Shown here: piece after piece, positions 23,699 to 34,540 of the stretch
Numbering within the stretch: position 1 is the stretch's first letter
How the letters are laid out: the number at the start of each line of letters is the position of its first letter
Assembly (NCBI GenBank): GCA_030524475.1
Contig: JAUNGO010000014.1
Location: 1-43,040, forward strand
Direction: 5' to 3'
DNA from: Eggerthellaceae bacterium
GTDB lineage: Bacteria > Actinomycetota > Coriobacteriia > Coriobacteriales > Eggerthellaceae
DNA length: 43,040 nt
The notes under the pieces: generated by a model
What the model was told of the DNA's origin: nothing
The model's database searches: none
The model's input: only the letters and a program-made list of their open reading frames with translations
Made by a program: the position numbers and the translations under genes

Positions 23699-25053
23699 TG
23701 GAATTGCATGCGGTTAATCTGCTCTACGATTTCGCCATTGCGGCGGCATTACTGTTCGTCGCTAAGATCCTGAGATGCAAGCTTAAGTTTATCCAGCGCG
23801 CCTACATTCCAGCTGCTTTGTTGGCTGGGTTTCTCGGCCTTTTCCTTGGGCCGCAATTTCTCGATGTGCTGCCCTTTAGCCAGGAGATCGGCAACTACCC
23901 GTCGATACTGATCTCGGTACTGTTTGGCTCCATGTTCGTGGGAACCAAAGACAGGGTGTCGGTCAAGTCCGTCCTCAACGGAGCGGGAGACACCCTACTC
24001 GTGAACGGCGCCTCTGAGATGATGCAGTTCGCCTTGTTCACCCTGATTGGGGTGACCGTGCTGCCGATGGTGTTCGGAGGCATTAACGAGGCGTTCGGCC
24101 TCATGTTGCCCGCTGGTTTTGTGGGAGGTCACGGCACGGCTGCGGCTATTGGCGGCGTGCTCGCCGAGTCCGGCTGGGCGGACGCCTCGACTATAGGTCA
24201 GACGTTCGCGACCGTCGGTTTGCTCGGGGGCATATTACTCGGTGTTGCGCTCATCAACCTCGGCGCTCGTAGGGGTTGGACCAAGGTCATTAAGGGCGTC
24301 GACGAGCTTCCCGAAGAGATGCTGACAGGGCTTGTCCCCGGCGACAAGGCGGCCTCGCTTGGCAAAAGCACTACGAACGGTGTTAGCATCGACTCGCTCA
24401 CGTGGCACGCGTGCCTAGTTTTGGTCTCGGTGGGCATGGCGTACCTTGTTAACGAGGGGCTTAAGGTTATCCTGCCGAGCGTGTCGTTCCCGACCTACGG
24501 TTTGGCTCTCCTTTGCGGCATCGTCGTGCAGTTTGCGTTGAAGGCGACTAAGCTCGACGCCAACGTCGACAGGGACGTGATCACCCACATCGGCAGCTCA
24601 GCGACGGATTTTCTGGTGGTGTTCGGTATCGCGTCGATCAAGGTGAGCGTTGTCGTGCGGTACTGGGTTCCGATTATCGTCCTCGCTGCGCTGGGTTTCC
24701 TGTTCGTGATCGCCTGGTTGCTGCTCGTCTCTCGCCGCTTCTTCCGTAGGTACTGGTTCGAGCACGGCATCTACATCTTCGGTATGTCCACGGGCGTGCT
24801 GGCGACAGGCGTTATCTTGCTGCGCATTACCGACCCGGAGTTCCGCACGGGCGTGTTGGAGGACTTCGGCTTGGCGTGGATTGTGCTGTCGGTGATGGAC
24901 GCTCTGTTGGTAGCTTTTGCACCGGTGTTTGTCGTGGCCGGGCAGGGCGTTGCTTTTGCCCTGGCGCTCGTTGCAGCGTCCGTGGTGGCTCTCGCTCTTT
25001 GCAGGTTTGTGTTCGGGCGCAAGAAGCACGAGCAAGAAGGGGAGCAACTATGA
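23698..25053 (+). CDS. GltS-type sodium/glutamate symporter family permease
   Basis: 451 residues, two halves of about five hydrophobic segments each, joined by a charged linker near residues 200-225. PAGFVGGHGTAAAIGG is the pore-loop signature of the ESS (GltS) family, normally importing glutamate with sodium; IGSSATDFLVVFGIASI is the matching re-entrant loop of the second half. The GTG start overlaps the ATP-grasp stop by 1 nt. A glutamate permease is unusual in a polysaccharide operon. Import of glutamate for the aminotransferase or the ligase is an inference. Confidence 0.88.
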   Translation: MELHAVNLLYDFAIAAALLFVAKILRCKLKFIQRAYIPAALLAGFLGLFLGPQFLDVLPFSQEIGNYPSILISVLFGSMFVGTKDRVSVKSVLNGAGDTLLVNGASEMMQFALFTLIGVTVLPMVFGGINEAFGLMLPAGFVGGHGTAAAIGGVLAESGWADASTIGQTFATVGLLGGILLGVALINLGARRGWTKVIKGVDELPEEMLTGLVPGDKAASLGKSTTNGVSIDSLTWHACLVLVSVGMAYLVNEGLKVILPSVSFPTYGLALLCGIVVQFALKATKLDANVDRDVITHIGSSATDFLVVFGIASIKVSVVVRYWVPIIVLAALGFLFVIAWLLLVSRRFFRRYWFEHGIYIFGMSTGVLATGVILLRITDPEFRTGVLEDFGLAWIVLSVMDALLVAFAPVFVVAGQGVAFALALVAASVVALALCRFVFGRKKHEQEGEQL

Positions 25054-25214
25054 AAGGCATAGTTCTCGCGGGCGGGTCCGGGATCCGGCTGCATCCCATA
25101 ACGAAATCGGTATATCTTTACACCGTCCTACCGAACTCTGTGGCTTTCCTTGTCGGTGCCTCTTCTCGGGCGTCTCAGTTTCTCCTGTCGGTTTGGTGCA
25201 TAGTTCCGAATTAG
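25050..25214 (+). pseudogene. rmlA: rmlA stub (first about 22 codons of glucose-1-P thymidylyltransferase)
   Basis: MKGIVLAGGSGIRLHPITKS is the unmistakable start of RmlA, including the nucleotide-binding GGSGxRL loop (the usual Thr is Ile here). It starts in an ATGA overlap with the permease gene, so it was once the next gene of the operon. After about 22 residues the sequence no longer resembles RmlA and the frame ends at 25214. The break marks the edge of the intact polysaccharide operon and of the adjoining accessory block. Confidence 0.75.
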
Positions 25215-25343
25215 TCGGCGCTGATCCTCGGTTCTGGAACTCTCGTCATGTTGTCGTCCCAAGGGCGCTTCCTTGTAAAGCGTTTTACTTTGGAAGCGAT
25301 GCTTGGGAACGCGGGTAACCCTTGAACCAATTTCGAAAGACTT
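25215..25343. other. Junction sequence without a gene
   Basis: A 129-nt non-coding scar between the rmlA stub and the end of the minus-strand gene block. No inverted repeats, tRNA or integrase site were seen. Confidence 0.35.
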
Positions 25344-25544
25344 CTAGTCCTTATACCGCGAATACCTCCCTAGCGTCTCTCTGAAGGCAATCAATATCCG
25401 CTCGTCTTCCTTGTCGATGGTCATAATTGTGGTGAAGGGGTCGACGACGCCGTTCTCGGCAAAGGGGGCAGGGGAGCTCCAAGCAACCGCAAGAACGCCT
25501 ACTTCGGCTTCACGGACGAGCCTGCGCGCGAACTGCGCTCTTTC
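25344..25544 (-). pseudogene. Out-of-frame C-terminal continuation of the small minus-strand gene
   Basis: A coding-like frame without its own start, reading ERAQFARRLVREAEVGVLAV, then AWSSPAPFAENGVVDPF, ending GRYSRYKD at a TAG (25344-25346). It lies in the -1 frame relative to the gene at 25499-25984 and joins it smoothly at about 25540 (ALEKE-RAQFARRL). It most likely encodes the original C-terminus of that protein, cut off by a one-base change. Confidence 0.5.
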
Positions 25545-25984
25545 TCAAGAGCGCGCTGGTGCAATTCGCTCAGGTGCTCCAAAAAGCTGCTCCAGTCGGT
25601 GTATTCCGCGCACTGACGTTGTTCGCTCTCGAGAAGCGCATCTCGATCGTGCTCATCGAGATCATTCGGATCCTTACCGCGATTTTCGCAGTATACCCCG
25701 TAGAAACCCTCTCCGGGCCTCCCGGTCGCCTTCGTAACCACCAGGGCGGGCAAACACGGAGCGCTATCATCCGGCTCACCGAAGTGCCTGCACTCATCCT
25801 GAATGCGACCAAGCGAGCACCTGAACCCGAGCGGGTGGATCGGGTCCTCTCCGAAAATGGAGGCCATCTTTTGCGCCAGAACGCCGTAGGTGATCGGCTC
25901 GTATGGGTGCTCGCCGAGCCAGCAAACTATCGTTGTTGCGGTGCGGTAGTCGAGCCAGCGTTTGCTAGATGTGATATGTTCCAT
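25499..25984 (-). CDS. Small protein with restriction-associated PGxGF motif, probably frameshifted
   Basis: 161 residues. The ATG at 25984 has a strong AAAGGAG ribosome binding site. The segment LPALVVTKATGRPGEGFYG resembles the lPsLVVnKkTGkPGeGF motif I associate with the N-terminal parts of HNH-type restriction-related proteins; no HNH is present. The preceding YGVLAQKMASIFGEDP segment may be a small helical domain. The last 11 residues (from SSRAGSSVKPK) are poor in character, while the -1 frame continues plausibly for 66 codons, so the gene may be frameshifted. It lies about 50 nt behind the HsdM/S-like gene, in the same direction. Confidence 0.6.
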   Translation of the reverse strand: MEHITSSKRWLDYRTATTIVCWLGEHPYEPITYGVLAQKMASIFGEDPIHPLGFRCSLGRIQDECRHFGEPDDSAPCLPALVVTKATGRPGEGFYGVYCENRGKDPNDLDEHDRDALLESEQRQCAEYTDWSSFLEHLSELHQRALEKERSSRAGSSVKPK

Positions 25985-26034: not shown

Positions 26035-27237
26035 TCACTCGCTCAGGGCACGCTCGATGCTGTCGACGTTGCGTTGCGCCTTCTCCAGCTCAACAAGAGC
26101 TTCGCGGTACTCTCGGCCTACCTTGGACTGTATCTCGCTCCAGTTGTCGGGCAGGAACAGGTCGTGTATCGCTTGAACGCTGACGTGTTTTGTCCCGCCC
26201 CCGCTTCGCGCGACGGCAAGGCCGCTGGGCCCGTTGAGGAAGGCTGCGACGAAGTGCGGATCGACGCCCTCTGCGGGAGAGACGACAATGAGCGTTTCGT
26301 GCGGGTAGAGCTGGGTAACGCTGCCTCGGAACACCTGCGCGCGAGCTTGAGCGCCCGCTCGTGCCACGATTATGTCTCCCGGCTTGAGCGGTTGGGCCGA
26401 GGTTGTCCTCGCGGCAACCTGAGTGCTCGGGTCCATCGGGATGCCTACGCCCTTGCGCCAGCGTCCTCCGTTGAAGTCGCCGGGGCCGACAAGGTACGCC
26501 TCGGCGTCGGGCTTTTGTGCGTTTCTCATCCCGCATCGACGCGGGTTCAGCCCCATGCGGGCGCGGGCGACGTTGAAGAGCCGGGTTCTGCTTCTATGGC
26601 TGGCGAGATGCGGCGCGTCAGCTTGCAGCATAAGGAAATCCCAGTCGATTCGCACCTTTCCTTCGAGTAGCGACCCAGTTGGACGCGAGAAATGTTCAGA
26701 CGTCTTCGCGAGGTCGGGGCTTCCGAAAATCGTCGCGCGGCAGAATTCCACCTCATCATTGCTCCTCGACAAGAGGAGGACCGCGCCCTGTCTGCCCGAT
26801 CCTTCGAAGCATGAGGCGGGCAGACTCACGACGCGCTCAAGGCATCCGCTCTCGAGAAGCGCCGCGCGTCCTTCGCCGAGCTCGGCAGATGATAGCGCGC
26901 CTCCGGGGAAGACGATTGCAACCCGCCCACCCGCAAGGCAGTGTTCGCGGATCTCCCTTGCCACGGCAAGAGGCAAGGGGTCGTCGTCGCATTGCGCGGC
27001 GCCGCTCTGAAACCCCTTGAGAAACAGAAGGGTTGCGCGGTCGACGCGCGTGCCGTGTCGCGCGAACACGGCGCTGTAAACGGTATCTTGCACAGGCTGA
27101 AGACGGACGTCGCGAATGGAAAGCTCTCGCTCTGCCGGTTCGGCCATGCCCAGTTCCTCGCAAGCCAGAGCCAAAAAGCCGCGTTTCAGGCGCAGCGGCT
27201 CACCCTCCCAGTAAACATCGGATTTGCGCGCACCCAT
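26035..27237 (-). CDS. HsdM/HsdS-like DNA-recognition protein without SAM-binding motif
   Basis: 400 residues. Residues 85-160 resemble the segment after the catalytic motif of type I N6-adenine methylases (GGRVAIVFPGGALSS, LERVVSLPASCFEGSG, AVLLLSRSNDEV). Residues 245-365 resemble an HsdS-type target recognition domain (LKPGDIIVARAGAQARAQVF, YPHETLIVVSP, VDPHFVAAFLNGPSG, GTKHVSVQAIHDLFLP), followed by a helical C-terminus (370-398). Upstream of residue 85 there is neither the SAM-binding FxGxG motif nor NPPY, so methylation is not expected. The ATG at 27237 has GGGAGG before it. It is divergent from the AAA+ gene with a 98-nt shared promoter region. Confidence 0.7.
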   Translation of the reverse strand: MGARKSDVYWEGEPLRLKRGFLALACEELGMAEPAERELSIRDVRLQPVQDTVYSAVFARHGTRVDRATLLFLKGFQSGAAQCDDDPLPLAVAREIREHCLAGGRVAIVFPGGALSSAELGEGRAALLESGCLERVVSLPASCFEGSGRQGAVLLLSRSNDEVEFCRATIFGSPDLAKTSEHFSRPTGSLLEGKVRIDWDFLMLQADAPHLASHRSRTRLFNVARARMGLNPRRCGMRNAQKPDAEAYLVGPGDFNGGRWRKGVGIPMDPSTQVAARTTSAQPLKPGDIIVARAGAQARAQVFRGSVTQLYPHETLIVVSPAEGVDPHFVAAFLNGPSGLAVARSGGGTKHVSVQAIHDLFLPDNWSEIQSKVGREYREALVELEKAQRNVDSIERALSE

Positions 27238-27253
27238 TGTTCCTCCCAAAAAA

Positions 27254-27319
27254 GTTGCCCGCACCCCTTGCATTGAATCGCAGTAAGAGCGTTACTGTAA
27301 TTATAGCAAGTCGGGCAAC
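27254..27319. promoter_or_regulatory. Nested dyad symmetry in the divergent promoter region
   Basis: Three inverted repeats share nearly the same centre: GTTGCCCG/CGGGCAAC (27254-27261, 27312-27319), CTTGC/GCAAG (27267-27271, 27306-27310) and CAGTAA/TTACTG (27281-27286, 27292-27297). TAATTATAG (27298-27306) may be a -10 towards the AAA+ gene. The layout fits a shared operator that controls both the HsdM/S-like and the AAA+/helicase genes. Confidence 0.55.
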
Positions 27320-27335
27320 CGAAAGAAGGGATCAG

Positions 27336-28988
27336 ATGGATCTGAAGCCGAGCGAGGTTTTGAGCAATCTCAAACATGAGATTGTCGGCCAAGACGAGGG
27401 GTGCCGTGCCATCGTCAGGGCGCTGTTGCTCTCCCTCAGCGTGGCGAACGCAAGAATCGACGGAGGGGTCGCTGGGTCTCCGCCCATCATCGCCACGCTT
27501 GTCATCGGGTCAACGGCGTCGGGCAAGACCTTCATCGTAAGGAAGGCGGTGCACGCCCTGGGCATTCAGGCGGTTTATATCGACTGCTCGGCTCTCACGG
27601 GGGCGGGATGGAGCGGAAGAAGTCTGTCCGACGCGCTTCATCCAGTGGCTCAGCTCCAACAGGAGAATCCCGACCAACCCGTCGCCGTTGTATTCGATGA
27701 GTTCGACAAGATTGTCCGCGGCACAGGGGATGGCGCGAATCGGGGATTCGAGATTGGCCCTGAGCTGCTCGCGCTGTTCAACGGAGGGACGATTACCTTG
27801 GAAACGGAGCGACACAACGGGTTCGATCTCGATACCGACAGGCTTGTGATCGTCTTTCTGGGAGCGTTCACGGGGATTGAGGACTACGTAAAGGACAGGC
27901 GCTGCTCGGCAAGGAGGGAGGTTGCATTGGGCTTTGCCTCGCCGTCTGCCGCAAAGGATGACGGGGGCGCCACGTACTTCGACGTAAAGCCGGAGGACCT
28001 CGAAGCGTGGGGCATCATGCGCGAGCTTGTCGGTCGCATTTGGCCGGCGATTGCGCTTCCGCCGCTTCCTCTGCAAGACCTCGTTGCTATTGCCCGCGAT
28101 TGTGCGGCGTCATCCTATGCTCGAGCGCTGCCTGGCGGAGCTTCGCTTACGGTGTCTGAGAGTGCGGCGCTTGAGATTGGCCGCGAAGCGATGGAAAGTG
28201 GCCTTGGGGCGCGGGCGGTGAACAACCGGGTACGTGAGCTTGCCGCACAGGCGAACGCCGACATGCTTGAGGACGACACAATCGTCTCTGCCACGATTGC
28301 CTGTTCAGATGGTAAGTTGCAGCTCGAGTACGTCCACGGTACCCGACAAACGGCCGCGCCGGCAATTGACTCGGGGCTTGCGGCTAGGCAAAAGCGCCTC
28401 AATGCACTCGTCTCCAGCCTCATGGCCCCCGATTCGAGGGGCGACGACGGCAATTCCAGCGAAAACGCTTCTGATATGCCTGGCCTCATGGATTGCCTTG
28501 TTCCGCCGGAGCGGTTTGTCGCCTTGGCAAATCTTAAGCATGTGGATGCCCTGTGCGACGCGCTCCTGCGCTACGGCCTGTCGGACGAAGACGCCCATCG
28601 CCTCCTCAAAGCCTTGGTTCTGTATGTCGGTGAGTGGTACAGGGCGCAGCCCGACTGTCGCCGCATGGGGGAAGTGCTCAAGCTGGTTGCCCTTGCGCGG
28701 AGGGGGGATCCCGAATGCGCTCTTTCTCCGCTTGATGTGATGATCGAGGGATGCCACAAGGGCGATGAGGCGTTTTATGGTTTTGCCGACTGGCTTGCGG
28801 AGCCTTCGCGCACGCGTGATGAAGTCTCAACTGGGGCGGTCTGTCTGAGCGAGTACCGTCGCTTTGCGCGTCTCGACGCAATGGGGCAGAATGCCGTAGC
28901 ACTCAATGTGGCGAGATCCGCTGCTCGGGCGATTCTGGAAGAGGAGAATAGGGGAGGCTTGCTCGCTGGTGTCGACAAGGGGTGCTAG
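27336..28988 (+). CDS. ClpX-like AAA+ ATPase with unknown C-terminal domain
   Basis: 550 residues. It opens with VLSNLKHEIVGQDEGCRAIV, the ClpX/HslU-type leader helix. Walker A is GSTASGKT (58-65), Walker B VVFDEFDK (118-125), sensor 1 in VIVFLGAF, and the sensor 2 Arg in GLGARAVNNRVREL (about 290). There is no zinc-binding domain and no IGF loop for ClpP, so it is not the housekeeping ClpX. The last 200 residues or so are helical and not recognised. The ATG at 27336 follows GAAGGG. It is the first gene of the strand that carries the helicase-nuclease and PIWI-like genes and might remodel or load those proteins. The role is inferred. Confidence 0.8.
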   Translation: MDLKPSEVLSNLKHEIVGQDEGCRAIVRALLLSLSVANARIDGGVAGSPPIIATLVIGSTASGKTFIVRKAVHALGIQAVYIDCSALTGAGWSGRSLSDALHPVAQLQQENPDQPVAVVFDEFDKIVRGTGDGANRGFEIGPELLALFNGGTITLETERHNGFDLDTDRLVIVFLGAFTGIEDYVKDRRCSARREVALGFASPSAAKDDGGATYFDVKPEDLEAWGIMRELVGRIWPAIALPPLPLQDLVAIARDCAASSYARALPGGASLTVSESAALEIGREAMESGLGARAVNNRVRELAAQANADMLEDDTIVSATIACSDGKLQLEYVHGTRQTAAPAIDSGLAARQKRLNALVSSLMAPDSRGDDGNSSENASDMPGLMDCLVPPERFVALANLKHVDALCDALLRYGLSDEDAHRLLKALVLYVGEWYRAQPDCRRMGEVLKLVALARRGDPECALSPLDVMIEGCHKGDEAFYGFADWLAEPSRTRDEVSTGAVCLSEYRRFARLDAMGQNAVALNVARSAARAILEEENRGGLLAGVDKGC

Positions 28989-29166: not shown

Positions 29167-32100
29167 ATGAAAAAAGACGATGCCGCGGATGCTGCCCGCC
29201 TCTCCGACGCAGTGCTCGAGGTGCTCCACGACGAGACTGCGGAAAACAGAGACGGCCTTCTGCTCATAGACATGCCCACGGGGTACGGGAAGTCCTATGC
29301 GGCGCAGCAGTTCCTCCCTCGGTTTGTGCTCGACGAGGCAAATCGAGGAAGAAACATCTTTTACATCACAAACCAGAAGAAAAACCTCCCGAAGCGCGAG
29401 GACATGATAAGGGCGTTCGCCGCGTGCGGCGTCGCCGATTCCGCGCGGATGGTCGACGAGCAAACCATGTGGGTGCAGTCCGTTGTCGACATGATGGAGG
29501 AGAACGCGACCGAGGAGCTCGACAGAGAAATCCCACTCGAGTTTAAAGGGGACAAATGGAAAAGTCTTCTGCAAGCTGCCGTCAACTACCGCGAGATGAA
29601 GGGGAATCCGTCTGTGCCCAACGGATACAGGACGATAGCCGAGGAGAGCCTCAGGATTGCGGAGAGGGCGTTTCGGGCCTACGTGTCCAAATTACTTTCA
29701 GAGCCGGATAGCCCCGAGGGCGAGAAAAAGGGAAAGAAGGCAAAACCGCTTACCTTGAAGAAGAGGATACGTAGGGTTGAGCTGGATCCTCGATGGCAGT
29801 GGCTTGGGAGGCTCTACCCTACGGTCTTCACGAGGCGGCGGCGGATTTTCCTGATGAGCGTGAACAAGTTCCTCGTGTCCAACATATCGGTGGTCGAGGG
29901 TGGCTATCGGTTTATCGACGACGACAAGCTGATGAAAGACGCTGTTGTGATCATCGACGAGTTTGACGGCAGCAAAGCGGTTCTCCAGCAGGACATCATC
30001 AAGAACTCAGTACGCGGGAAGGCCGAGCCGATCGCGCTGCTCAAGCAGATACACAAGGCGTTCGAGGACGACGGCTTCCCATCCGAGATGACTCGCGTGC
30101 CTAAGGATCGCAACCTGCCAAGCGACCGCATAAAGAGCACCCTGGAGCGAATGAAGGACGTCGTGTCTGGGACGTATGACGACTGCAGGCTTCGATACAA
30201 CTTTAAAAGCGACGACGAGCCCGGATGGCAGGATTTCATTTTTCACGACCACGAGTACCGCTGTGCGAGCGACAAGCGCTACTACGTCACGTTCGATCCC
30301 GCGGAAAGGCACAATCGCCTCGTGTCGAGCAAAAAAGAGGCTGACGGCGAGCCTCTAACTCATATTCTCGGCCGGGTAAGAGGCGCCCTGCAGTACTCCC
30401 AGAACGGGATAAGCCTCATAGCCGAGAACTACCAGAAACTCGAGAACGCCAGGAGAGGGCCCGACGAGGCAGAGTTCTCCTACGAAAACGCTCTCTACTC
30501 GATACTCGACCAGTTCGGAATCGTCGGCGACAGCGCCAAGGAGTTCATGGCGAGCGGCGCTTCGTCGCCTTTCAGGCGAGGGGGAAAGAAGAAGCTTGAG
30601 ACGGCCGATTTGAGGGGAGACTACTCGGTGTACGAGCGCGGCATTCACTTCGTCCATCTCGAGAACAGCGAGGAGCACAAGGAGCGCACGCGGGTCAGCA
30701 TGTATGCCATGCAGGACACCCCCGAGAAGACGATTCTCAGGCTTTGCGAGAAGAACTTCATCGTAGGTCTGTCCGCCACGGGAACCATTGACTCGGTGCT
30801 TTGCAACTACGACCTGCGCTATTTCAAGGATTCTCTCGGCGAACGATTCAGGACGTTGTCGGCTCGGCGCATGGAGACGATGAGGAAGGCATTCGAGGGA
30901 CAAAACGCCGGCTACGAGAATGTGAGTATCGAGACAACGCTAATAGACGACGCGGATGACGGGTGGCGCGGGGCATTCGGCGACGCGGAACTTGCCGTTA
31001 GGATGCGTCGGCTTGCGGCCAGCAGGAAAGGCGGCGGCAAAGACGACGACTACGGTGTGAGCCGCTATTTGCGCCTGTGCATAGCTTTCAGGTCGTTTCT
31101 CGAGCACGACGACATAAAATCTATGCTCTGTCTGACTATGGCGGCACCTAGGCCGGGCGGCGCCATAGACTCCGAGACTCTGACTGCGCTCTTCGACGCC
31201 CTTGTGTCGGCCTGTAACGCTTCGTTGCCCCAGCAGGAGGGAAAGGCTTACGCCTTCATATCGGGATCGAGGAACTTCGATGCTGAGTACGCTGGGCTCA
31301 AGTCCCGCCTCGAGGCGGGAGAAAAGCTGTTCATCGTGGCCGCCTACGACACGGTGGGAACTGGCGTGAACCTGCAGTACAGGATTCCGAAGGGAGTGGA
31401 GACCTGCAAGATATACGAGTTCGACAACGGCTGTAACGAGAAGGACTTTGACGCAATCTACCTCGACCGCCCGACGAACACCGCGCCATGGCTCAGTCCC
31501 GCCCAGAACAACGAGGCGGGCCTTCTGGACAACCTCTATCGCATGTGCGAGCTGCGCGAGCGAGCCGAGGTAGACGAGAGCGAGTACGTGCAGGCCTACA
31601 CGGCGCTTCTGAGCTACTTTGCCACGCAGAAGCAGAAGAAGGGCCGTTTCATGCCAAAGGGCCTCAAGGAACGCCCGTCGGCGAAGGCGTTCGCAACAAA
31701 GACGGTCAACCAGGCGGTCGGCAGGATATGCAGGACGCCGAACAAGAACAAGACCGTCTACCTGTTCGCGGATGCGGGGTTAGCCGATACGATGGATCTC
31801 GACTTTGGTGCCGACGGCCTTATCAACAACGAGTACGCCGCACTCGTCGGCGCGCTGAAGGAACGTCGGGTTGAGGGATCGAAGCCTTTCAAGTATAGGC
31901 TCGAATCACGTGCGGCCCTGCAGTCCGACAAGCTCAACCAGCAGATCTTGAGCACGGTGAGGTATAAATCCTGGAATGCCGAGAAAGTGCAGTGGTGGCG
32001 CAGGCTGAGGGACGCCTCATTGCGCCACCCCACGCTTGCCGACCCGGATGCGGACAGGTTTGCGAAGAGGGTGTATGCCGAAGCGGGCATGCCGATTGCG

Positions 32101-32724
32101 GGCTACTCTTACGATGAGGTGGGAGATTACGGATCGATCCAAGGAATCTCCTTCGAGAGCGTCGACGCGTTGTCGAAGGCCGTCAGCGAGGAGGCGGCGG
32201 CCCTGCCGACCATCTTGGAGATACCGGGCGTCCGCGGGTTGTTCGAGGGGATGGGGTGGGCGACCGGCTTTGCCCCTGCACGCCACATCATGACCCCCGT
32301 GATTTTCAACAACATATACAAAGGCGCGCTTGGGGAGGCCGTCGGAAAGTTCATTCTGGAGCAGAGGCTCCCGGAAATCGCGCTCTCCGAAATAGACGAT
32401 GCGGGCAAGTTCGAGCGATTCGACTATGTGGTCAAGGGAACCGATGTCTATGTCGACTTTAAGCACTGGCAGGGGTTCTGCGGTGATAGCGAGACTGCCG
32501 AGTTCGAAAGGGTAAGGGAGAAGATGCACGAGGTGGGCGCGAAGCAAGCCTTGGTCGTCAACCTGCTGGGTTGTGCCGAAGACGGTTACGAGTACGCGTT
32601 GTCGAGCGATCACGCCATCATGACGGTTCCCTACCTCTACGACGTGTCGGCCCGAGAACTGAGCGACGAGAACCTCACCCGTATCTGCATGTTTCTGAAA
32701 ATGGGAGGCTTGAATGAGGATTAG
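29167..32724 (+). CDS. SF2 helicase with C-terminal PD-(D/E)XK nuclease, DdmD-like
   Basis: 1185 residues. Helicase motifs: I LIDMPTGYGKSYAAQQ (about 34-49), II VVIIDEFDG (about 259-267), III VGLSATGTID (about 532-541), V AAYDTVGTGVNLQYRIP (about 724-740), VI NQAVGRICRTPNKNKT (about 847-862). The C-terminal domain holds a PD-(D/E)XK core: GALGEAVGKFILEQ (about 1051-1064), then FDYVV and VYVDFKHWQ with Asp1097 and Lys1099. Length, order and the fusion match DdmD, which with DdmE eliminates plasmids in Vibrio cholerae by guide-directed unwinding and DNA degradation. It overlaps the next gene by 11 nt. All motor and nuclease residues look intact. Confidence 0.85.
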   Translation: MKKDDAADAARLSDAVLEVLHDETAENRDGLLLIDMPTGYGKSYAAQQFLPRFVLDEANRGRNIFYITNQKKNLPKREDMIRAFAACGVADSARMVDEQTMWVQSVVDMMEENATEELDREIPLEFKGDKWKSLLQAAVNYREMKGNPSVPNGYRTIAEESLRIAERAFRAYVSKLLSEPDSPEGEKKGKKAKPLTLKKRIRRVELDPRWQWLGRLYPTVFTRRRRIFLMSVNKFLVSNISVVEGGYRFIDDDKLMKDAVVIIDEFDGSKAVLQQDIIKNSVRGKAEPIALLKQIHKAFEDDGFPSEMTRVPKDRNLPSDRIKSTLERMKDVVSGTYDDCRLRYNFKSDDEPGWQDFIFHDHEYRCASDKRYYVTFDPAERHNRLVSSKKEADGEPLTHILGRVRGALQYSQNGISLIAENYQKLENARRGPDEAEFSYENALYSILDQFGIVGDSAKEFMASGASSPFRRGGKKKLETADLRGDYSVYERGIHFVHLENSEEHKERTRVSMYAMQDTPEKTILRLCEKNFIVGLSATGTIDSVLCNYDLRYFKDSLGERFRTLSARRMETMRKAFEGQNAGYENVSIETTLIDDADDGWRGAFGDAELAVRMRRLAASRKGGGKDDDYGVSRYLRLCIAFRSFLEHDDIKSMLCLTMAAPRPGGAIDSETLTALFDALVSACNASLPQQEGKAYAFISGSRNFDAEYAGLKSRLEAGEKLFIVAAYDTVGTGVNLQYRIPKGVETCKIYEFDNGCNEKDFDAIYLDRPTNTAPWLSPAQNNEAGLLDNLYRMCELRERAEVDESEYVQAYTALLSYFATQKQKKGRFMPKGLKERPSAKAFATKTVNQAVGRICRTPNKNKTVYLFADAGLADTMDLDFGADGLINNEYAALVGALKERRVEGSKPFKYRLESRAALQSDKLNQQILSTVRYKSWNAEKVQWWRRLRDASLRHPTLADPDADRFAKRVYAEAGMPIAGYSYDEVGDYGSIQGISFESVDALSKAVSEEAAALPTILEIPGVRGLFEGMGWATGFAPARHIMTPVIFNNIYKGALGEAVGKFILEQRLPEIALSEIDDAGKFERFDYVVKGTDVYVDFKHWQGFCGDSETAEFERVREKMHEVGAKQALVVNLLGCAEDGYEYALSSDHAIMTVPYLYDVSARELSDENLTRICMFLKMGGLNED

Positions 32725-34540
32725 TAGGATTTCTCCGGCTTTTGACTATGCGAGGCTTTCCGAGTTGGTGCAGGTGTGGAGGCTCGCGACAAGCGACGAT
32801 CGCGTCAGGCGGGGTGCCCGCGCCCTCGACGTTCAATGCGACGAAGGCGAAGTCCTGAGCGTGTTTTTCTCCTCGGGTCGGGAGATTTTTCTGATGGTTG
32901 ACGCGCATGTCGATGGCCTCGCCTTGTCAAAACGCATCGTGCAGGCTTCGCCCGACGATCATCTGAGCGCGGCAAGGGTGGGGCTGGATTCGCTCAATCC
33001 CTGCACCCTCTTGCAGCTGCTGATCAACTCCCTTGCTGCTCCGAAGGGCTGCGGCTTGAGCTTCAACAACGTCTCAGGCCACCTTTTTGTGGTACCCGCC
33101 GGCGGAATCAAGAGGCGCGCCGGTCTTGTAGAGCAGGTTCATGCTCTCGAGGTCAGGGTTGCCCAGGACGGTGCCCTCGGCCTTCATGTTCGTACCTTCT
33201 CGTCGCTGAGGTTGAAGAGGTACATGCGCAAGAGTCGAATTGACCCAGAGCGGATGCCCAGATACGCCATCACCCCGATGGGTGACCTGCGAAGGTCTTT
33301 TGACGGCGGCGAGGACGAACTGGTAATGAGGCAGCTGGGCGGGAAGAAACATCGCATGCCCTTCTTGGACGCCTCGACGCTGGAAGGATACGAGACGTGC
33401 AAGCTCGGGATTCTCGACGAGACGCTGAGACTGCTTGAGTTGAGATACGGGGGTTGCTGTTCCGTCGAGTTCGAGGAATTCGACGACTCGGCGCGGGTCT
33501 CGGATACGCGCTACGTGAGCGCCAGGTGGCGGGAAGAAATCAGGGCGATGTTCGGCGACGAGCGGATTGTCGTTTCGAACGAGACCGGGAGCGACGAGTA
33601 TGGCGACGTCTGCGAGGAGCTTGCCGAGGCGTTGGCCGACCTCACTGGCCTAGAAGCGCTTGTGGGCGAAGCTGCTGACGACGAAGGCAAGATGCTCGTG
33701 CGGGTGATACACGAAAAAGGGTACTTTGCCGACGGTGGGGAGGACAGCTACACCGAGCAGCATCCGCATTCGGTCGTGCAGCACGTGACGGTGGAAACCC
33801 TGTGCGCTCAATTCAGTATCCCTTCCGCTGTGGTCGACTCGCTCGCAAAGGAGCTCGCCATAAAGAGGGACGTCGTCTCCGGCTCGATCCGCGTGTTCGA
33901 TTGGAAAGGCTCGGGACTCGGGGGTCTTTGGACCTTCGGCTTGGTAATTGACGACGACGGTGATAACGGCGATAACGGCGGTGACCGATACGCCTTTGTG
34001 AAGGTCGGGAGCGAGGGCGAGCTCGATTTCGCGTTCGAGGGGTGGGACCCGACGGGGGAGTCTGCTTATTCCGACCTCATAGACGACCTCTCGCTCGAAA
34101 GAGGGGCCTGCGCGATTGTCAGGTCGCCAGAAGGAGACGTCGACGTCATCTTCGACACCGTGCTGTTCGCGGTTCCCGACTTCGCGGAGATAAGAAAATG
34201 CCTCGTCGGTGAGCAGGGGCGCATATCGAGGAGCCGAGAGGCGATTGACGGATACCTCAGGGAGTCGACGGACGTGTCGTACGCACCTATAGACGAGCGC
34301 TCGGGGTATTACTATGCAGGTGTTGTGGGAGGAGGCATGCAGACAAAGGTCCCGACCGCGGCCGTCATCAGGAGGACAGAGACGTTGCGCGGCTCCGGCC
34401 CGGTGCTCCCGAGGATACTTCCTCTCATGGACGTCGACTTTGTGAAGACCAAAGCCTTGACGGTTGTGCCCTTTCCGCTGAAGCACCTTCGCGAATGGCT
34501 CGCGATGAACGGCCTGGCTTTCGTTTGCGCGGAGAAATGA
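32714..34540 (+). CDS. Putative DdmE-like (short prokaryotic Argonaute-like) protein
   Basis: 608 residues, soluble, no recognised N-terminal domain. Two parts recall MID/PIWI proteins: LVRVIHEKGYFADGGEDSY then VVQHVTVETLCA (about 329-360), and the end, GYYYAGVVGGGMQTKVPT, LPRILPLMDVDFVKTKALTV then PFPLKHLREWL (about 534-597), like the C-terminus of PIWI domains. No DEDX catalytic set is apparent, as in the guide-only Ago DdmE. It overlaps the helicase-nuclease gene by 11 nt, which ties the two together. A short DNG repeat (9-nt units near 33958-33984) sits in an acidic loop. Assignment rests on partner, size and these weak motifs. Confidence 0.55.
   Translation: MRISRISPAFDYARLSELVQVWRLATSDDRVRRGARALDVQCDEGEVLSVFFSSGREIFLMVDAHVDGLALSKRIVQASPDDHLSAARVGLDSLNPCTLLQLLINSLAAPKGCGLSFNNVSGHLFVVPAGGIKRRAGLVEQVHALEVRVAQDGALGLHVRTFSSLRLKRYMRKSRIDPERMPRYAITPMGDLRRSFDGGEDELVMRQLGGKKHRMPFLDASTLEGYETCKLGILDETLRLLELRYGGCCSVEFEEFDDSARVSDTRYVSARWREEIRAMFGDERIVVSNETGSDEYGDVCEELAEALADLTGLEALVGEAADDEGKMLVRVIHEKGYFADGGEDSYTEQHPHSVVQHVTVETLCAQFSIPSAVVDSLAKELAIKRDVVSGSIRVFDWKGSGLGGLWTFGLVIDDDGDNGDNGGDRYAFVKVGSEGELDFAFEGWDPTGESAYSDLIDDLSLERGACAIVRSPEGDVDVIFDTVLFAVPDFAEIRKCLVGEQGRISRSREAIDGYLRESTDVSYAPIDERSGYYYAGVVGGGMQTKVPTAAVIRRTETLRGSGPVLPRILPLMDVDFVKTKALTVVPFPLKHLREWLAMNGLAFVCAEK

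What the first reader, a model, noticed from the sequence alone, without database searches (positions are those of the whole stretch)
26035..27237. Methylase-like protein without SAM motif fused to a target recognition domain
The protein keeps the post-catalytic segment of an N6-adenine methylase and an HsdS-like recognition domain with helical tail, but the region that should hold FxGxG and NPPY is missing. It begins at a good ribosome binding site, so it is not simply a 5' truncation by a mutation. It could be a sequence reader without methylation.
Basis: partly seen in the sequence, partly recalled or inferred. Interest (0 to 1): 0.7.

Follow-up and report, generated by a model that had tools for sequence, protein, structure and literature searches.

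The report
Methylase-dead DNA reader beside plasmid-defence operon
A bacterial protein that looks like half of a DNA-methylating enzyme has lost the parts needed to methylate but kept the part that recognises DNA, and it sits back-to-back with a ClpX-like unfoldase and a DdmD/DdmE-type plasmid-destroying system; a second bacterial lineage has the same arrangement, so it is probably a working accessory rather than debris.

Summary
The 400-aa ORF (26035-27237, minus strand) matches only the post-catalytic block and the single target-recognition domain (TRD) of methylase-TRD fusions. No SAM (FxGxG) or NPPY motif exists, residues 1-102 match nothing, and it starts at a good ribosome-binding site. 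Long homologues exist: 580-630-aa fusions, mostly first genes of type I restriction loci, so this protein derives from a methylase by losing its front half. It is probably not debris. It is divergently transcribed from a ClpX-like AAA+ gene, a DdmD helicase-nuclease (E=6e-58 to a solved DdmD) and a DdmE Argonaute-like gene. A second lineage (G306) carries the same set in the same divergent layout; its 534-aa counterpart keeps the fold but has both catalytic motifs eroded (ELCCRDFEF; CRPPE). Two other loci lost ClpX-like, membrane-protein and methylase-like genes together while keeping DdmDE. I read it as a methylation-incapable DNA reader in a separable module, most likely regulating or targeting DdmDE; the exact role is inferred. 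I found no published description of this combination. A no-alignment structure model was uninformative, and a palindrome in the divergent promoter is not significant by shuffling. New variant of a known kind.

The parts
26035..27237 (-). pseudo-methylase/TRD fusion, 400 aa (the finding)
26932..27237 (-). N-terminal residues 1-102: no SAM motif I, no NPPY; matches no family
26731..26931 (-). post-catalytic methylase block, residues 103-169
   Evidence: (domain E 1e-6)
26047..26406 (-). HsdS-like target recognition domain and tail, residues 278-397
   Evidence: (domain E 2.9e-10)
26041..26142 (-). C-terminal helix (residues 366-399), the only part of the model with high confidence
27238..27335 (.). 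98-bp divergent intergenic region; holds RBS GGGAGG and palindrome CAGTAA-N5-TTACTG (27281-27297; shuffle p=0.12, not significant)
27336..28988 (+). ClpX-like AAA+ unfoldase without zinc-binding N-domain, with an extra C-terminal domain (550 aa)
29167..32724 (+). DdmD-like SF2 helicase + PD-(D/E)XK nuclease (1185 aa)
32714..34540 (+). DdmE-like Argonaute-related protein (608 aa)
25499..25984 (-). 161-aa protein of unknown family just downstream of the finding, same strand; possibly co-transcribed
   Evidence: no Pfam match

Best explanation
The protein is a methylation-incapable descendant of a methylase-TRD fusion family. It has lost the N-terminal helical region, the SAM-binding motif and NPPY, and keeps the C-terminal half of the methylase fold, one TRD and the helical tail. 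With the ClpX-like ATPase it forms an accessory module of a DdmDE-type plasmid-defence locus. Most likely it binds one DNA sequence (probably as a dimer through its helical tail) and uses that binding to control the system. The divergent layout favours autoregulation of the ClpX-like-DdmD-DdmE operon; marking of DNA for DdmDE or ClpX-like action is the alternative. Shown by sequence: domain make-up, loss of motifs, context, recurrence in a second lineage, joint loss of the module. Inferred: DNA binding, dimerisation, regulatory or targeting role, any ClpX-like partnership.
For: Domain boundaries and missing motifs. DdmD identity: E=6e-58 over 25-1163 to solved DdmD 9ix4; DdmE E=9e-8 to 8u0j. 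Same gene set and divergent layout in G306, where ClpX-like is 30% identical full-length and the divergent 534-aa protein aligns to the methylase-TRD profile at probability 95.6% with ELCCRDFEF for motif I and CRPPE for NPPF. In G229/G329, with 81%-identical DdmD/DdmE, one junction removes ClpX-like (leaving ~140 bp of its 3' end), the membrane gene and the pseudo-methylase, stopping 28 bp past the pseudo-methylase stop codon: the module was lost as a block. Coding signal and RBS.
Against: Only two intact examples. The two pseudo-methylases do not match each other significantly by BLASTP (E=0.78), so they might be independent recruitments. DdmDE loci in G101, G796 and G797 lack the module, so it is dispensable. 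The palindrome between the divergent genes is not significant (p=0.12). The structure model was poor, mean pLDDT 36.
Confidence: 0.55

Rival explanations
1. Decayed remnant: a methylase-TRD fusion truncated at its 5' end, now drifting without function.
For: Long homologues of 580-630 aa exist; no homologue of the same length was found; residues 1-102 match nothing.
Against: 400 codons open with even codon-position bias, good RBS, TRD intact to the helical tail; the counterpart in the same context in G306 is also motif-dead but nearly full length, so motif loss does not simply follow from truncation.
Confidence: 0.22
2. Specificity half-subunit in trans: it supplies a TRD to a standard HsdM encoded elsewhere and so still directs methylation.
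For: The genome encodes an HsdM-like protein on contig C21; TRD plus helical tail is the part of HsdS that contacts HsdM (established knowledge).
Against: No hsdM or hsdR next to it; it keeps half a methylase fold, which a pure S subunit does not need; the G306 counterpart keeps nearly the whole dead fold.
Confidence: 0.1
3. Sequence-specific targeting factor: binding of its site recruits ClpX-like and DdmD/DdmE to foreign DNA, or marks self DNA for protection, rather than regulating transcription.
For: How pAgo-type systems acquire guides is still open (PMC12904381, read: guide acquisition 'broadly remains to be understood'); the ClpX-like gene lies in the same operon as DdmDE.
Against: DdmDE works without such a factor elsewhere; two loci lost the module and kept DdmDE; the divergent layout suits a regulator.
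Confidence: 0.13

Closest known systems
Methylase-TRD fusions heading type I restriction loci ('N-6 DNA methylase', e.g. WP_081196204.1 Lactococcus, WP_008591562.1 Salimicrobium, WP_014566283.1 Lactobacillus; also G041, G076)
   Same: Order methylase block - single TRD - helical tail; target aligns over 102-390
   Different: Those are 580-630 aa with a whole Rossmann fold and sit upstream of hsdM-hsdS-hsdR; the target lacks the front half and sits with DdmDE. Several of those also have non-standard motif IV (VPPF, FPPI, NFPF, NYPF)
DdmDE plasmid-elimination system (Vibrio cholerae and others)
   Same: DdmD helicase-nuclease and DdmE Argonaute-like genes adjacent
   Different: Known DdmDE is a two-gene system; here a ClpX-like gene heads the operon and a pseudo-methylase/TRD gene diverges from it
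ClpX
   Same: AAA+ core with Walker A/B; a GF-type loop (VALGFAS) where ClpX has its ClpP-docking IGF loop
   Different: No zinc-binding N-domain, pore motif GWSG instead of GYVG, extra ~220-aa C-terminal domain shared with chromosomal ClpX-like paralogues of the same class
MADS (methylation-associated defence system) MAD2/MAD5
   Same: Weak profile matches to MAD2 (E 9e-4) and MAD5 (E 1.5e-3)
   Different: MAD proteins are separate methylase and S subunits of a larger system; scores lie far below the curated cut-off

Membership tests
N6-adenine DNA methyltransferase (HsdM type, PF02384) | SAM-binding motif I (FxGxG) | tested here: not met
   Pfam match starts at profile 170/311; family profile match starts at 254/573; absent alignment
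N6-adenine DNA methyltransferase (HsdM type, PF02384) | Catalytic motif IV (N/D/S)PP(Y/F) | tested here: not met
   No such tetrad; aligned position reads LKGF
N6-adenine DNA methyltransferase (HsdM type, PF02384) | Post-catalytic strands/helices of the fold | tested here: met
   Residues 97-166, E 7.9e-6; 103-169
Type I specificity subunit (HsdS) | Target recognition domain | tested here: met
   PADLOC Specificity_I ~2e-4; family profile 437-561 matched, domain E 2.9e-10; no match reported to Pfam PF01420
Type I specificity subunit (HsdS) | Two TRDs with two conserved helical regions | tested here: not met
   Only one TRD block
Methylase-TRD fusion family (type I loci) | Colinear methylase block + single TRD + tail | tested here: met
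   hhalign 102-390, 97.8%; front half missing
DdmDE | DdmD: SF2 helicase and PD-(D/E)XK nuclease, full length | tested here: met
   9ix4, E 6e-58, 25-1163; motifs conserved
DdmDE | DdmE: Argonaute-like partner next to DdmD | tested here: met
   8u0j E 9e-8, two stretches; homologous to Nostoc, G101, G306 partners
DdmDE | Guide-directed plasmid elimination | not testable with these tools
   needs experiment
ClpX (27336-28988) | AAA+ core | tested here: met
   E 5e-19 to ClpX 6sfw
ClpX (27336-28988) | N-terminal zinc-binding domain | tested here: not met
   match starts at residue 63 of ClpX with residue 4 of the query
MADS MAD5 | NCBIfam equivalog cut-off | tested here: not met
   17.4 bits against cut-off 400

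The most novel reading that the evidence does not exclude
A DdmDE plasmid-defence variant in which a methylase fold stripped of catalysis serves as a sequence reader and works with a ClpX-like unfoldase to switch or aim an Argonaute-guided helicase-nuclease, giving a guide-based system a second, protein-based sequence input.
Probability: 0.3. Interest if true: 0.8.

Novelty: new variant of a known kind. Interest (0 to 1): 0.55.

Why it matters
How DdmDE chooses plasmids and how it is kept from harming the host are open. A co-inherited, methylation-incapable DNA-binding protein plus an unfoldase would be a direct handle on that control, and would add a clear case of a restriction methylase turned into a reader. 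It also points to a little-noticed family of methylase-TRD fusions at type I restriction loci whose catalytic motifs are often non-standard.

Tried and rejected
Close homologues: none in GTDB contigs, plasmids or viral contigs, and in 138 genomes of the same family only ordinary methylase/specificity proteins plus the G041 fusion. Operator idea: CAGTAA-N5-TTACTG (27281-27297) is unique in the genome within one mismatch, but arms of that size arise in 12% of shuffles; GTTGCCCG/CGGGCAAC at 27254/27312 was not pursued. ClpX-like relatives in other genomes of the class are chromosomal paralogues, some beside MutS-like genes, without DdmDE, so the ClpX-like gene alone does not mark the system. Literature: no paper in the held library joins DdmDE with ClpX or DdmD/DdmE with a methyltransferase, nor were descriptions of inactive methylase-TRD fusions found. 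A remnant in G278 (65 aa, 75% identical to the C-terminus of the G306 protein) had no DdmDE beside it. A first comparison of ClpX-like neighbourhoods used a faulty reference set for the window's proteins; it was redone with the right one for the DdmDE loci.

Full report
What is there. The ORF at 26035-27237 (minus strand) encodes 400 aa and starts at an ATG behind GGGAGGAACA. Its codon-position GC (0.70/0.50/0.71) is even along the gene and close to that of the neighbouring ClpX-like gene, while housekeeping arg genes in the same window have GC3 of 0.84-0.92, so finding and neighbours look like one acquired island. Pfam finds only the back part of N6_Mtase (profile 170-237 of 311; residues 97-166; E=7.9e-6). 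PADLOC adds type I specificity matches over ~272-397. Nothing matches residues 1-102.

Where it comes from. A search of the same bacterial family found a 599-aa protein in genome G041 that aligns with residues 103-385 at 24% identity (E=2e-11). It is a methylase with motif I DFGCGRGNF and motif IV NFPF, fused to a single TRD, and it is the first gene of an hsdM-hsdS-hsdR locus. The same kind of protein is the first gene of type I restriction loci on Lactococcus, Salimicrobium and Lactobacillus plasmids and lies upstream of hsdM in G076; a Subdoligranulum plasmid carries one too. A profile of seven of these (none from DdmDE loci) gives the target E=7e-19 in two blocks, 103-169 and 278-397; hhalign agrees (102-390, 97.8%). 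So the target most likely descends from this family by loss of the front half. Motif IV varies even in the long members: NFPF, NYPF, NFPL, DYPF, VPPF, FPPI. NxPF may still be active, as rRNA adenine methylases use NxPY (established knowledge); VPPF and FPPI probably are not (inference).

Context. Divergently from the target, 98 bp away, runs an operon: ClpX-like AAA+ (27336-28988), DdmD (29167-32724), DdmE (32714-34540). DdmD matches solved DdmD 9ix4 over 25-1163 at E=6e-58 and keeps the helicase and nuclease motifs. DdmE matches solved DdmE at E=9e-8 in two stretches. The ClpX-like protein matches ClpX only over the AAA+ core, lacks the zinc-binding domain, keeps a GF-type loop, and has an extra C-terminal domain.

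Recurrence. ClpX-like is 30% identical over its length to the window's and is its best match by E-value among the ClpX-like proteins compared; DdmD and DdmE are 24-25% identical. The 534-aa protein aligns to the methylase-TRD profile over 53-524 (95.6%), with motif I read as ELCCRDFEF and NPPF as CRPPE; Pfam sees no methylase in it. So two lineages with the same gene set have methylase-like proteins that by sequence cannot methylate, one by erosion and one by loss of the front half. BLASTP between the two is not significant, so common descent of the pair is not shown.

The module can be lost as a unit. G229 and G329 carry DdmDE 81% identical to G306's. Their DNA follows G306 through DdmD into the last ~140 bp of ClpX-like, then jumps to 28 bp past the pseudo-methylase stop (done on G329; G229 has the same gene order). 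The leftover ClpX-like end shows deletion, not a primitive absence. G101, G796 and G797 have DdmDE without the module, and G794 is cut at its contig end. Of eight DdmDE loci seen in the order, two have the module, two show its loss (probably one event), three lack it, one is unreadable upstream. DdmDE itself is rare: 8 of 395 genomes of the order.

How it most likely works. The protein has no recognised motif for binding SAM or methylating adenine, but retains the DNA-reading domain. The simplest role is site-specific DNA binding. The divergent layout in both lineages suits control of the operon it faces. A targeting or licensing role for DdmDE, with the ClpX-like ATPase as remodeller, is possible. 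Neither is shown. The CAGTAA-N5-TTACTG palindrome in the promoter region is a lead only (p=0.12).

Limits. Two intact examples; no usable structure; the held literature lacks most subscription papers, so 'undescribed' means not found there. Function rests on inference.

Noticed in passing
window 25050-25215: Start of an rmlA-like gene (MKGIVLAGGSGIRLHPITKSV...) breaks off after ~21 codons, just before the defence island: probable insertion or rearrangement point inside a polysaccharide gene cluster.
   Followed up: partly
L025:9994-9997 / L027:13595-18113: Deletion (G329, same layout in G229) that removes ClpX-like (but its last ~140 bp), a membrane-protein gene and the pseudo-methylase next to an intact DdmDE.
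   Followed up: yes
L084, L085 (genomes G076, G125): The methylase-TRD fusion of type I loci is followed by a ~184-222-aa protein of unknown family; with the non-standard motif IV this suggests a conserved accessory pair of unknown function.
   Followed up: no
L060, L062 and G000:C53 (L059): Chromosomal ClpX-like paralogues with extra C-terminal domain; in G220 and G299 they sit beside two further conserved genes, MutS-like by Pfam in G220: an uncharacterised cluster.
   Followed up: partly
L123:1-1020: Short direct repeats resembling a CRISPR array directly upstream of a DdmDE pair in G797.
   Followed up: no
L077:9212-12784: DdmD homologue on a contig catalogued as viral (IMGVR_UViG_2511231129_000002).
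   Followed up: no
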